Assembly (NCBI GenBank): GCA_010094025.1
Contig: ML991776.1
Location: 310,001 to 374,000 of the forward strand
Direction of reading: 5' to 3'
Length of the DNA stretch: 64,000 nucleotides
Source of the DNA: Viridothelium virens
Taxonomy: Eukaryota > Ascomycota > Dothideomycetes > Trypetheliales > Trypetheliaceae
Shown here piece after piece: positions 50,820 to 54,381 of this stretch. Below the pieces are notes generated by a model that was not told where the DNA came from, did not search any database, and saw only the letters and a program-made list of their open reading frames with translations. How positions within the stretch are numbered: position 1 is the first letter of the stretch; each line of letters begins with the position of its first letter. The position numbers and the translations under genes are program-made.

Positions 50820-53800
50820 ATGACTCCTAGACCCTTGCGCTGGGCAGTTGTGATCCATGGCGGCTGCACCAACACCTTGTTTGATCCTGAAGTTCAGCGA
50901 GACATTCAAGATAACCTCGCCACCATCCTTGGGACTGTTGAATTGGCTCTCAAAGAGGGTGTCCAAGCAAAAGATGTTGTTGTGAAAACAATCTCGGCCT
51001 TGGAAGATTGCCCTCTATTCAACGCTGGAAAAGGCGCCGCCTTCACACTCGATGGAGGCCATGAGGTAAGTAGCCCAAGAGATTTCTTTCAAACACTTGT
51101 GCAGTACTGACTGGGATAAATGTAGCTCGAAGCTGGTCTTGTCGATGGCCACTCAGGCTCCTATGGTGCTGTATCTTGCCTTACTGTGACCAAAAATCCG
51201 ATTCTTGCTGCAGATGCCGTCTTATACCGTGGAAATCATTGCATGATAGCTGGAAGTGCTGCCGATGACTTGTCCAGGAAGCTTGGTCTGGAGATAGTCC
51301 CGAATACTTACTTTAGCACAATCTCTCGGCGTGCCTTCTGGGAAGCTAATATTAGGATCGGACACCAACGCACGGCATGGGAAGCTGGTACCGTAGGTGT
51401 CATTGCCCTTGATTCACACGGCCACATTGCTGTCGGAGGCTCTACTGGTGGCATTTCCGGCAAAGATAGTGGAAGGGTTGGAGACACAGCAGTGCTCGGT
51501 GCCGGCCTTTTCGCAGACTCGAAGCTAGGTGTTGCCTGGTAAGTATTTCCTGGCAGTACCTTGCCGCGGCTGGGGGGTTCCTCAGCTGGTAATCAATACA
51601 ATGTTAACTCAGTTTCATTGTTATGACCGTGTTGGCCCATGTTAAGGCGGCGTTAACATGGACCAATAAGATCATAACAGTAAAGTCGAAATCACATTGT
51701 ATTAATTACCCGTTGAGGAACCCCCCAGCCGCGGTAAGGTACTTATACCTTATGTTCTACACCTTAATTTTCTGCTCTCTTGAATGTTGGCTCGACTCTA
51801 GCACTGCGCTTCCTCACACGAACTCGTTTTACTGACGAAATAACAGTAGCGGAGCGGGCGACGAAATTTTTCGGCACTTGCTTGCTACCAAAGTCACAAG
51901 TCACCATTCGCACGGTCTTAGTCTTGAGGCCGCAACTCACAAAGCACTTTCGCAGATATCCCTGACGGGTAAGCCATGTGCCATTGTGGCAATGGATAAA
52001 GAGGGCATGGTATCTATTCAATCAACGAGCCGCCTTTTCTCAACGGCGTTGGGTTCTTCAAACCAGCCTTCCACAGTACATATACACCAGGCTACCCTAC
52101 CAGTACTGCCCCAGCACATTTTCTACAGTGACTCACATTTGTCTGCCGGGCTATCGCAGTTTCCAACTACACAAGGGCAATCTACGGCCGTTCTCAAGCA
52201 TTCGGCGCCAAGTTTATTCTCTCTTGAACAAGCAGATTTTCTAAGAGCCATGATCACCATCAAGAGCTTGCAACAGAAGCTCCGCGCTTTCTATGGTGTA
52301 AATCGCTGCGCTCTTATTACTGAGGGAAACCACCCTATCTCAATGATTCCACTGCATGGTCTGAGCGAAGAATGGAAGCCAGTCATTGGCAATGCAAATG
52401 AATTCCACGAAGAGTTTCCTGGCTACATTACATCAAAGGATGGCCCCGAGATGGACAAGGACCGACAGGAACAGATTGCCTTTTCGATCAGAGCCGAAAT
52501 CGGCCTTGAAGAACCATTCAATTACCAGTTCCAAGGCGAGAAGCATGACAGCAATCTCTTCGCTCGGCTTGTCAGAGGTGAGCTACCTCAATCTCGCATA
52601 TGGGAGACTGATGAGCATGTTGCGTTCCTGACGCCTTTTGGAAATACTCCTGGCTTTACGGTTCTTGTGCCTCGGGCTCACCTCACGAGCGACATTTTCT
52701 CCATCGATGATAATGCTTACTTGAAGCTTTTGGCTGCCGCTCACACTGTTGGCAGGCATCTAATAAGCGCTTTCCACGTCAGTCGCTGTGGTATGATATT
52801 TGAGGGGTTTGAGATTGACTATGCTCATATCAAGCTGGTTCCAATCCACGAAACCCATCTTTTGAATGTAAAGCTAATCACCACTACTGTGGTACAGGAA
52901 GCAAGCTTTGAAGAGACTTATCAAGGATACATAACATCTCTTAACGGCCCTCTTTGCAAAGACATTGAGTCCTTATCTGCCGATGCTTCATCAATCCGAA
53001 GAACTATTTTGAGCGCGCGAGCCAAAGCTCCACGCAGTTGGGTATCCCCAGTGGACCATGCAGCAGCTGTACTCACAGAGCCTTGGTACAGCAACTTATT
53101 TGCGGCACAAGACTCGCTTTTTCACAGCTCGGTCAACTTTTTCAAGCATCGACTCAATTACAAGTACACTTTTGTCCCAGCTACCACGGACGCAATCAGC
53201 TCACCTATGGGTCTTGGATCGGATTCTGTGCCTGTCCCCATAAACTTCCTAGGCCAAGATACCCATCTCGCCGACTCAATGCAGTTCGCTCTGGAATACT
53301 CCCTGCGCATAGCGGATGATTCGCCCGGTGTCTACTATATTAGCACTTCATTTCGCGGAGAAGACCCTGATGCTATGCACCTTAACCAATTTCACCACGT
53401 GGAATGTGAACTCATTGGTGATTTTCAGAAGGGCATCTCCGTCGCAGAAAAGTACCTGGTCAGCGTTATCTCTGCAATGACTCGTGATCTATGCGGGCCT
53501 ATCCAAATGCCGGCGGGCAGCATTGATCATCTTGACGCATTCTTGGAGCTACATCGATCAAACAGTGGGAAGCTACCGCAAATTACAGTTGAAGAGGCCC
53601 TCAGCCTTCCACAAATGGATCACACTTGCTGGAAACATGCCGTACAAGGCGACCCAAAGCATGGTCATTGTATCACCCGCGCCGGCGAGGTGAAACTGAT
53701 CGAACATTTTGGTGGCGCTGTCTGGCTCACTGAAATGGATCATCTCAGTGTCCCGTTCTACCAAGCCTATGTTGAGGGAAGCTTGGACAAGAAAGCTCGA

Positions 53801-53965
53801 TGTGCCGACTTGCTCCTGGGAAATGGCGAAGTGCTCGGTCTTGGCGAACGTCATGTGCATGCTAGTGACGTACTTCGAGCTTTGGATCAGCATAAGGTTC
53901 CCACTGAGCCGTATACTTGGTATTCGGAAATGAGGGAGACGAAGCCTATCCAAACCACAGGATGA
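50820..53965 (+). CDS. Asparaginase-type Ntn hydrolase / tandem HIT / AsnRS-like fusion
   Basis: Exons 50820-51065, 51126-51538 and 51847-53965 give 925 aa. Residues 1-290 form a type-2 asparaginase/isoaspartyl peptidase: FNAGKGAAFTLDGGHE, GLVDGHSGSYGAVSCL, the nucleophile Thr171 in EAGTVGVIALD, the substrate loop GRVGDTAVLGAG and CSGAGDEIFRHLLATKV after the last splice. Residues 325-420 look like a degenerate HIT domain. Residues 453-555 are a clearer HIT domain (NLFARLVRGELP, PGFTVLVPRAHL, YAHIKLVPIHE). Residues 620-925 resemble the class-II core of asparaginyl-tRNA synthetase, with motif 2 in YYISTSFRGEDPDAMHLNQF, then HHVECEL and ADLLLGNGEVLGLGERH. There is no anticodon-binding domain. 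The frame stops at TGA 53963-53965, and class-II motif 3 continues in frame beyond it. Each domain call is strong. The joint function is unknown; amide or aspartyl chemistry through an adenylate is inferred. Confidence 0.8.
51559..51739. mobile_element. Foldback MITE (TA target duplication) in an intron
   Basis: A 181-bp element flanked by TA on both sides. The left end CCTTGCCGCGGCTGGGGGGT and the right end, read in reverse complement (CCTTACCGCGGCTGGGGGGT), match for about 46 bp with few differences. The inverted symmetry continues to the centre (TTGGCCCATGTTAA against TTAACATGGACCAA around GGCGG). It has no coding capacity. TA duplication suggests a Tc1/mariner-type source for the transposase. 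It lies in intron 2 of the fusion gene (51539-51846), which is 308 bp with it and would be about 125 bp without. The high symmetry suggests a fairly recent insertion. Confidence 0.85.
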
Positions 53966-54067
53966 GGCATGGGTGTTGAGCGTTTTCTAGCCTGGCTCTT
54001 CCAGCACAATGATATTCGTGACTTGGTCACTATGCCAAGGATGAAGGGCTCTTCATTCTCTGTCTAA
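53966..54067 (+). other. In-frame continuation encoding class-II synthetase motif 3
   Basis: Directly after the TGA the same frame stays open for 33 codons to a TAA. It reads GMGVERFLAWLFQHNDIRDL and then VTMPRMKGSSFSV. GMGVERF is the class-II motif 3 (GxGxER) with the AsnRS-type follow-up (FLxWLLxHxDIRD, PRxKG). In AsnRS-like proteins the residue at the TGA position is Trp (TTGWGMG), one base away. The segment is thus the true C-terminus of the ancestral protein. Confidence 0.8.
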
Positions 54068-54081
54068 TACTCTCGAAATAC

Positions 54082-54126
54082 CATTCTATTGATTACCAGT
54101 TGAGGAACCCCCCAGCCGCGGTAAGG
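54082..54126. mobile_element. Solo terminal fragment of the same MITE family
   Basis: 45 bp closely matching the right end of the intronic element (GATTACCAGTTGAGGAACCC through GCCGCGGTAAGG). No matching inner half is present upstream. It lies just beyond the TAA that ends the fusion gene's extended frame. Confidence 0.7.
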
Positions 54127-54258
54127 TGTTCTGATTGCTGTCATTCTTGAAACTACTGCGTTGGTATCTTACATGATTCGACTGAATGATGGACTCGATA
54201 TCTTACACGATCTCCCTTGCTGATGTACCTTCATCACCACAAATGAAAGCAAATGCCA

Positions 54259-54381
54259 ACTTTACTGTTGTGACCTTGTTGACCCATGTTAACGCCGCCT
54301 TACATGGGCCAACATGATCATAATGGTCATAACAGTTAAACTGAGGTAACATTGTATTAATTACTAGTTGAGGAAGCCCCC
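54259..54381. mobile_element. Truncated, diverged copy of the same MITE
   Basis: About 123 bp aligns by eye with the internal and right part of the intronic copy: TGTGACCTTGTTGACCCATG, TACATGGGCCAACATGATCA, ATTGTATTAATTACTAGTTG and AGGAAGCCCCC. The terminal CCGCGGTAAGG is lost. It is more diverged than the intronic copy and so is older or decayed. Confidence 0.65.

What the first reader, a model, noticed from the sequence alone, without database searches (positions are those of the whole stretch)
50820..54067. Asparaginase + tandem HIT + AsnRS-like single-chain fusion
Seen: one frame joins a complete-looking type-2 asparaginase/isoaspartyl peptidase, two HIT-like units and an AsnRS-like class-II core without anticodon-binding domain. 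Known: class-II cores without tRNA-binding parts often activate amino acids as adenylates for non-translational ligation, HIT (HINT) enzymes cleave aminoacyl-AMP, and type-2 asparaginases cleave the Asn or isoAsp amide. Inferred: the three could form one module that makes, proofreads or recycles an aspartyl/asparaginyl adducts or amide metabolite. I know no characterised enzyme with this architecture.
Basis: partly seen in the sequence, partly recalled or inferred. Interest (0 to 1): 0.87.

Follow-up and report, generated by a model that had tools for sequence, protein, structure and literature searches.

The report
Fungal fusion of nucleotide-antibiotic enzymes
A gene that looks fungal joins, in one protein, relatives of bacterial enzymes that appear to build and destroy antibiotics made by linking an amino acid to a nucleotide; a close copy of the whole fusion was found in a giant sulfur bacterium, and in this copy a stop codon cuts off the end of the building part.

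Summary
The fusion is real. With two introns removed, a 925-aa frame (50820-53965) joins a type-2 asparaginase/isoaspartyl peptidase, two HIT units and an AsnRS-like core; the asparaginase end, both HITs and the core share one exon without a stop. The core is closest to the AgnA (agrocin 84 synthetase) family. HIT2 has most of the published signature of the MccH clade, phosphoramidases that destroy the microcin C payload, and groups with HITs bearing that signature (100/100); HIT1 lacks the catalytic His. The same order, behind an acyltransferase domain, lies in one ORF of a Candidatus Parabeggiatoa MAG (38.6% identity). AgnA relatives have an MccF-like S66 peptidase nearby in 68 of 88 loci. 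Best reading: a laterally moved single-chain machine for aspartyl/asparaginyl-nucleotide phosphoramidates. So this copy may have lost synthesis while keeping its hydrolases, may be decaying, or may be read through. Function is inferred; no fungal genomes could be surveyed.

The parts
50820..51065 (+). exon 1, start of the type-2 asparaginase/isoaspartyl peptidase domain
   Evidence: Pfam PF01112 58.8 bits; splice GT at 51066
51066..51125 (+). intron 1, 60 nt
   Evidence: GT-AG, frame kept
51126..51538 (+). exon 2, asparaginase domain with GTVG (Thr 171), STGG and GRVGD motifs
   Evidence: PF01112 121.3 bits; motif positions; 2zak E 1.2e-39 for the spliced domain
51539..51846 (+). intron 2, 308 nt, holding a MITE-like element
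   Evidence: GT-AG, frame kept; inverted repeat
51555..51743 (.). 189-bp MITE-like inverted repeat (94-nt arms, 82% complementary) inside intron 2
51847..52063 (+). exon 3, C-terminal part of the asparaginase domain
   Evidence: PF01112 positions 229-307, 31.3 bits
52064..52507 (+). HIT1, degenerate MccH-like HIT unit without the central catalytic His
   Evidence: phmmer 7e-13 to the Salmonella HIT protein L006; tree; L010 HIT1 lacks it too
52508..52975 (+). HIT2, MccH-type HIT unit: F490, E539-GFEID-Y545-A-H547-I-K549
   Evidence: PF01230; 3p0t E 1.5e-12 for a stretch holding both units; signature; clade 100/100
52802..52834 (+). HIT2 active-site motif EGFEIDYAHIK
52976..53962 (+). AgnA-like class-II synthetase core without anticodon-binding domain (motif 2 Arg 723 in FRGE, Arg 888 in GLGERH)
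   Evidence: 33-44% identity in the 18 listed plasmid rows that match the core; PF00152; AF2 pLDDT mostly 74-97 here with dips below 61 at exon-3 residues 451-480 and 501-520, AsnRS as top fold hits
53963..53965 (+). in-frame TGA inside class-II motif 3; at this position 88 bacterial relatives have Phe (86), Trp (1, L010) or Met (1, L079)
53966..54067 (+). motif-3 segment (33 codons and a stop) in the same frame after the TGA
   Evidence: AsnRS 2xti/2xgt match E 0.0011; gap-free alignment to relatives
54073..54381 (.). pieces of the same MITE-like family just downstream of the gene (54073-54127, 54259-54381)

Best explanation
The gene is kin to a rare bacterial fusion, most simply by lateral transfer, whose domains all address one chemical object: an aspartyl/asparaginyl group joined to AMP through a nitrogen-phosphorus bond. 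SHOWN: the fusion; the core's kinship with AgnA; a HIT pair of MccH type, one unit dead and one bearing the signature; a type-2 asparaginase with its motifs; the same architecture in a Parabeggiatoa MAG; a TGA in motif 3. INFERRED: the AgnA-like core activates Asp/Asn with ATP and makes an N-acyl phosphoramidate of AMP; the asparaginase cleaves the (iso)aspartyl amide bond (a role like MccF or MccG), leaving a nucleotide phosphoramide; HIT2, steadied by dead HIT1 as an internal pseudo-dimer, cleaves the P-N bond. Synthesis and self-protection would then be in one chain. In this copy the TGA removes the motif-3 arginine, so the likely state is synthesis lost, hydrolases possibly kept, unless the stop is read through.
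For: Core vs bacterial AgnA relatives: E 2e-35 to 1e-52, 33-44% identity in the 18 listed core rows of 38 matching plasmid records, against E 1.5e-3 to the best solved AsnRS (other program and database). agnA is described as an AsnRS homologue without anticodon domain and a biosynthetic enzyme of agrocin 84 (PMC4392301, passages); agrocin's toxic part has an N-acyl phosphoramidate bond (PMC4307249, passages). MccH signature and activity on aspartamide-adenylate: PMC7157772, section 10 and passages. In window HIT2 the residues F490, E539, H547 and K549 have the same spacing as F44, E93, H101 and K103 of MccH; HIT tree 100/100. The McC payload is an isoaspartyl nucleotide, with GNAT, S66, S51 and HIT immunity enzymes (PMC9239234, passages). 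AgnA loci: S66 in 68 of 88, any searched aaRS paralogue in 27, GNAT in 6, HIT in 3, asparaginase_2 in 2; control: 56 S66 genes in 26 genomes of about 146 Mb. L010 fusion 38.6% identical; the two cores are sisters, 100/99. L031: a tandem-HIT gene directly before agnA.
Against: No activity is shown. In the passages I read, AgnA's own reaction is not demonstrated. The gene's neighbours among the ORFs scanned (20 of 62) are mostly housekeeping, and phmmer with S66, aaRS, methyltransferase, MFS and other cluster queries finds nothing but the gene itself. Motif 3 is cut by a stop. The first triad residue of HIT2 is Tyr, not His, and the equivalent of MccH F91 is Ile. Clade membership does not assure activity: two MccH homologues (Microcystis, one Parcubacterium) were inactive in the published test. 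The L031 tandem HIT is outside the MccH clade. The HIT-for-S66 swap rests on 3 loci (Fisher p 0.010), two on contigs under 9 kb. NCBIfam's nearest name is asparagine synthetase A, below its cut-off.
Confidence: 0.5

Rival explanations
1. Decaying gene: this copy is a pseudogene or a strain-specific nonsense allele with no present function; the chemistry described belongs to its intact relatives.
For: In-frame TGA in motif 3; MITE-like insertion in intron 2 and pieces downstream; among 14 in-frame GT-AG introns that would skip the stop, each removes at least 102 nt (34 codons) of the core.
Against: No other stop or frameshift in 925 codons; splice sites intact; motif-3 residues after the stop still fit the family; asparaginase and HIT2 motifs are in place. 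RIP indices of the gene are close to the window's (0.67/1.44 against 0.65/1.30).
Confidence: 0.35
2. Detoxification only: the protein degrades imported or endogenous aspartyl-nucleotide toxins; the AgnA-like part serves as a binding module, and its truncation is of no consequence.
For: Most tested MccH homologues confer resistance to McC1120 (PMC7157772, passages); hydrolase motifs in place while motif 3 is cut; no exporter or tailoring gene of the searched kinds found in the window.
Against: The core keeps the motif 2 and GERH arginines conserved in the family; L010 has an intact motif 3 plus an acyltransferase domain, which suggests synthesis.
Confidence: 0.25
3. Asparagine metabolism: the core is an ammonia-dependent asparagine synthetase A and the asparaginase the opposing enzyme, with HIT clearing adenylate side products.
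For: The best NCBIfam model for the core is asparagine synthetase A (169 bits for the window, 195 for L010).
Against: Both are far below that model's cut-off (322); AgnA of pAgK84 draws the same name, also below cut-off; the family profile fits AsnRS 1x54 (1e-41) better than the solved archaeal AS-A 3p8t (4e-18); 68 of 88 relatives have an S66 gene nearby.
Confidence: 0.12
4. Read-through: the TGA is recoded at the RNA or ribosome level, so that a full-length synthetase is made conditionally.
For: The stop takes the place of a single residue in an otherwise gap-free conserved motif, and the frame continues to a natural C-terminus.
Against: No direct evidence. Exon 3 holds seven TGG and no other in-frame TGA, so TGA is not evidently a general Trp codon. 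The stop context was not examined.
Confidence: 0.1

Closest known systems
AgnA, agrocin 84 synthetase (pAgK84) and its family
   Same: AsnRS-like core without anticodon-binding domain; 40% identity to AgnA itself, same conserved motifs
   Different: In 81 of 88 bacterial loci the frame is at most 500 codons stop to stop; fusions were seen in L001 (GNAT) and L010 (full), and five other long frames were not examined. The window copy is fused, probably fungal, and cut in motif 3
MccH clade of HIT phosphoramidases (Hyalangium, Salmonella and others)
   Same: Glu, central His, Lys and Phe at the published spacing; clade support 100/100; best solved match 3P0T, also the published model's template
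   Different: First triad His is Tyr; F91 equivalent is Ile; in tandem with a dead unit; fused
Type-2 asparaginase/isoaspartyl peptidase (2zak; E. coli IaaA by recall)
   Same: GTVG, STGG and GRVGD motifs; E 1.2e-39
   Different: Fused; CSGAGDE where L010 has CTGTGEL; maturation untested
Candidatus Parabeggiatoa fusion (QNER01000461.1, L010)
   Same: Asparaginase-HIT1-HIT2-core in the same order, 38.6% identity
   Different: Extra N-terminal Carn_acyltransf domain; open 5' end; intact motif 3; no introns
Archaeal asparagine synthetase A (3p8t)
   Same: AsnRS-like core; 294-residue chain, without anticodon domain by recall
   Different: Weaker match to the AgnA-family profile than AsnRS (4e-18 against 1e-41)

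Membership tests
AgnA family | closer to AgnA relatives than to AsnRS | tested here: met
   tblastn E 2e-35 to 1e-52 to AgnA relatives against 1.5e-3 to the best solved AsnRS (different program and database). The tree holds only AgnA-type rows, no AsnRS outgroup
AgnA family | no anticodon-binding domain | tested here: met
   only HIT and asparaginase domains lie N-terminal of the core
AgnA family | class-II motif 3 in the open frame | tested here: not met
   TGA 53963-53965; motif 3 follows in frame after it. The 88 bacterial rows read through this position
AgnA family | gene cluster with S66 peptidase, methyltransferase or aaRS paralogue | tested here: not met
   phmmer of these queries on six-frame ORFs of the window finds only the gene itself; Pfam on 20 of 62 ORFs shows none; intron-split genes could be missed
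AgnA family | makes an N-acyl phosphoramidate nucleotide | not testable with these tools
   no assay
MccH clade (HIT2) | third triad His replaced by Lys | tested here: met
   K549; definition
MccH clade (HIT2) | Glu upstream of the triad and Phe in place of the N-terminal His | tested here: met
   E539 and F490, same spacing as E93 and F44 of MccH
MccH clade (HIT2) | first triad His | tested here: not met
   Y545; Tyr in L010 too
MccH clade (HIT2) | groups with signature-bearing HITs | tested here: met
   8-row clade 100/100 against 25 other HIT rows; MccH of Hyalangium itself was not in the tree
MccH clade (HIT1) | central catalytic His | tested here: not met
   absent in the window and in L010 by alignment
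Type-2 asparaginase | Pfam domain and catalytic Thr motif | tested here: met
Type-2 asparaginase | autocleavage and activity | not testable with these tools
   no assay
Asparagine synthetase A (NCBIfam) | score above the curated cut-off | tested here: not met
   169 bits, cut-off 322; the piece before the stop was scanned
AsnRS | score above the curated cut-off | tested here: not met
   64 bits, cut-off 342.6; the piece before the stop was scanned
AsnRS | anticodon-binding domain | tested here: not met
   no such Pfam domain in the 709-aa exon

The most novel reading that the evidence does not exclude
Some fungi carry a horizontally acquired single-chain synthesise-and-destroy enzyme for Trojan-horse-type aspartyl-nucleotide phosphoramidates, a eukaryotic counterpart of agrocin 84/microcin C chemistry. 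The copy in this window is an immune non-producer allele: a stop in motif 3 disables synthesis while the MccH-type phosphoramidase and isoaspartyl amidase remain.
Probability: 0.25. Interest if true: 0.9.

Novelty: new variant of a known kind. Interest (0 to 1): 0.72.

Why it matters
It would bring the chemistry of agrocin 84 and microcin C into fungi. It would also give a natural single-chain pairing of a supposed P-N-bond synthetase with enzymes that undo its product, which makes the reaction of AgnA-type enzymes testable through the intact bacterial fusion. The pairing of AgnA relatives with S66 (68 of 88 loci), and sometimes GNAT, HIT or asparaginase enzymes, gives a genome-mining handle for aminoacyl-nucleotide antibiotics.

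Tried and rejected
Rejected: unrelated neighbouring genes (one uninterrupted exon holds the asparaginase end, both HITs and the core; L010 repeats the order). Rejected: a tRNA-charging AsnRS (no anticodon domain; 64 bits against a cut-off of 342.6). Rejected: an intron that removes the stop (14 in-frame GT-AG options found with donors from 53400 on; each removes at least 102 nt of the core). Unlikely: TGA as a general sense codon (exon 3 has seven TGG and no other in-frame TGA). Unlikely: RIP. Less likely: L010 as mis-binned eukaryotic DNA, since its 3' flank is repeat-rich native Parabeggiatoa DNA; a chimeric contig cannot be excluded, and the ORF's G+C (0.536) differs from that of the rest of the contig (0.407).

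Led nowhere: four viral-contig scans (HIT-core part, A1, asparaginase of L051, A2; no relative); PADLOC (none); AlphaFold of the HIT and asparaginase parts (shallow alignments, blocks of pLDDT 22-75; only the core is reliable). Paper searches for the architecture (I saw listings, and passages of PMC3532385, which names no asparaginase or histidine triad) gave no description. I found no fungal genome collection among the tools, so the fungal spread is unknown.
Full report
WHAT IS THERE. The window is eukaryotic and looks fungal: introns, and Sld7-, Spt20-, Ssl1- and eIF2B-like neighbours; the organism is not known to me. At 50820-53965 three exons give a 925-aa protein. Domains in order: type-2 asparaginase (residues 1-292), HIT1 (293-440), HIT2 (441-596), AsnRS-like core (597-925); I set these boundaries from the alignments. 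The last part of the asparaginase, both HIT units and the core lie in a single exon without a stop. Pfam sees the asparaginase, one HIT and tRNA-synt_2 above cut-off; HIT1 is too degenerate for Pfam and was recognised by comparison with a Salmonella HIT protein (7e-13).

THE STOP. The frame closes at TGA 53963-53965. The next 33 codons of the same frame read as the motif-3 segment of AsnRS-type enzymes and match residues 406-433 of AsnRS 2xti with E 0.0011. At the position of the TGA, 88 bacterial relatives have Phe (86), Trp (1, L010) or Met (1, L079); 81 rows were scored by a pattern and 7 read by eye from the printed ends. Fourteen in-frame GT-AG introns would skip the stop, each at the cost of at least 34 codons of the core. 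So the open frame lacks the motif-3 arginine that class-II enzymes use for ATP (recalled knowledge).

THE CORE. A tblastn against plasmids found 38 records, 20 listed. Eighteen of these match the core (six of them also the tail of HIT2) at 33-44% identity: AgnA of pAgK84 and genes labelled asparagine synthetase A, amino acid--tRNA ligase-related or GNAT; the other two listed, Salmonella L006 and a Proteus record, match the HIT part. A genome-contig scan with the nine-row alignment A1 confirmed 132 relatives, of which the best 80 were kept. A profile of the family matches archaeal AsnRS 1x54 (1e-41) better than AspRS (2e-23) or archaeal asparagine synthetase A (4e-18), and the predicted fold finds AsnRS first. 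NCBIfam gives no name above its cut-off. agnA is described as an AsnRS homologue without anticodon domain that became a biosynthetic enzyme of agrocin 84 (PMC4392301, passages).

THE NEIGHBOURHOOD OF THE FAMILY. Taking 88 loci (8 plasmid loci plus 80 genome loci; L006, a HIT locus, left out), an S66 peptidase like that of L002 lies in the held flanks of 68, in 56 of those 68 within 5 kb; a SAM methyltransferase in 49; any of the searched aaRS paralogues in 27; GNAT in 6. As a control, 26 of the 80 genomes hold 56 S66 genes in about 146 Mb, that is under 1 per 100 stretches of 20 kb (some of the 56 are the ones at the AgnA loci; 25 of the 26 genomes have at least one). HIT genes occur in 3 of 88 (L010 fused, L011, L031) and none of the three has S66 in its flank (Fisher p 0.010; L010 and L011 are contigs under 9 kb). 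In L031 one base lies between a tandem-HIT gene and agnA, but that HIT is outside the MccH clade; in L011 the HIT gene lies some 6.6 kb downstream on the same strand. An asparaginase_2 gene occurs in 2 of 88 (L010 fused; L051 separate, and L051 also has S66 and GNAT). In Pantoea L001 a GNAT domain is fused to the core; GNAT is the MccE type of immunity.

THE HIT UNITS. PMC7157772 (section 10 whole, other passages) defines the MccH clade: third triad His replaced by an essential Lys, a Glu upstream of the triad, a Phe for the N-terminal His. MccH hydrolyses the phosphoramide of aspartamide-adenylate; most of the homologues tested, a Salmonella enterica one among them, gave resistance to McC1120 but not McC1177, and two (Microcystis, one Parcubacterium) were inactive. 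Whether the tested Salmonella protein is L006's was not checked. Window HIT2 has F490, E539, H547 and K549 at the same spacing as F44, E93, H101 and K103 of MccH; the first triad residue is Tyr in the window and in L010, and the F91 equivalent is Ile in the window. In a tree of 33 HIT rows both window units group with L010's units, Salmonella L006, L123 and L011/L121 at 100/100, apart from 25 other HIT rows (L011/L121 and L113/L122 are the same sequences twice; L119 was left out as a copy of L010, L120 gave no match). HIT1 lacks the central His in both fusions, so the dead-plus-active pair probably predates their split; the HIT1 pairing has 92/89 support and the program warns of long branches.

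THE BACTERIAL TWIN. L010 (Candidatus Parabeggiatoa MAG, QNER01000461.1) has one ORF, open at the contig's 5' end, with Carn_acyltransf, Asparaginase_2, HIT1, HIT2 and the core, 38.6% identical over an alignment that spans all 925 residues of the window protein. The two cores are sister rows at 100/99. Searching genomes, the fusion was found only in that MAG itself: 1 of 42 genomes of its order, 1 of 369 drawn from its class, and 0 of 282 drawn from the phylum of G043, where 3 have a match to the core alone. The ORF's G+C is 0.536 against 0.407 in the rest of the contig; the flank is native repeat-rich DNA, and on another contig of the MAG the same flank begins at the ORF's end. This fits lateral transfer; its direction is not shown.

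HOW IT MAY WORK. The microcin C payload is an isoasparaginyl nucleotide with a phosphoramide link, disarmed by acetylation (MccE), amide cleavage (MccF, MccG) or P-N cleavage (MccH) (PMC9239234, passages); the toxic part of agrocin 84 has an N-acyl phosphoramidate bond (PMC4307249, PMC5059758, passages). The window protein puts an amide hydrolase for (iso)aspartyl groups and an MccH-type unit on the same chain as an AgnA-type core. I infer a machine that makes such a nucleotide and limits or recycles it. In this copy the core is cut at motif 3, so synthesis is probably lost and the hydrolases may remain. Confidence: architecture and family placement high; chemistry about even; present activity open.

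LIMITS. No fungal genome was searchable; AlphaFold was reliable only for the core; AgnA's reaction is not demonstrated in the passages I read; no S66, aaRS, methyltransferase or MFS gene of the searched kinds shows in the window, and Pfam was run on 20 of its 62 longer ORFs besides the gene. Novelty was checked only in listings of the held library, where I found no description of this fusion.

Noticed in passing
window 51555-51743, 54073-54127, 54259-54381: A MITE-like family: one 189-bp inverted repeat inside intron 2 and pieces just 3' of the gene; blastn found no other copies in the window.
   Followed up: partly
L001:9641-11236: Pantoea agglomerans plasmid ORF fuses a GNAT acetyltransferase to an AgnA-like core beside an MFS transporter: a possible one-gene synthesis-plus-immunity unit.
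   Followed up: partly
L051:7437-17983: AgnA-like gene near ThiF-rhodanese, GNAT and asparaginase_2 genes (Pfam) and ORFs that I read by eye as YcaO-, cysteine-desulfurase-, LuxD- and LuxC-like.
   Followed up: no
L076 and L080: Vibrio and Photobacterium loci with ThiF-, AgnA-, S66- and methyltransferase-like ORFs together.
   Followed up: no
L010:4487-4576 against L131:7782-7871: The native flank after the fusion ORF is found on another contig of the same MAG, starting at the ORF's end, like an empty-site boundary.
   Followed up: partly
L010:1-1470: A choline/carnitine acyltransferase domain is fused in front of the asparaginase in the Parabeggiatoa protein.
   Followed up: no
L005, L007: AgnA-type clusters with two alanine--tRNA ligase or related genes and ATP-grasp genes, which suggests that other amino acids are attached in those pathways.
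   Followed up: no
L045, L054, L064, L075, L089: AgnA-like frames of 544-748 codons stop to stop, longer than most; further fusions or only long open frames in G+C-rich DNA.
   Followed up: no
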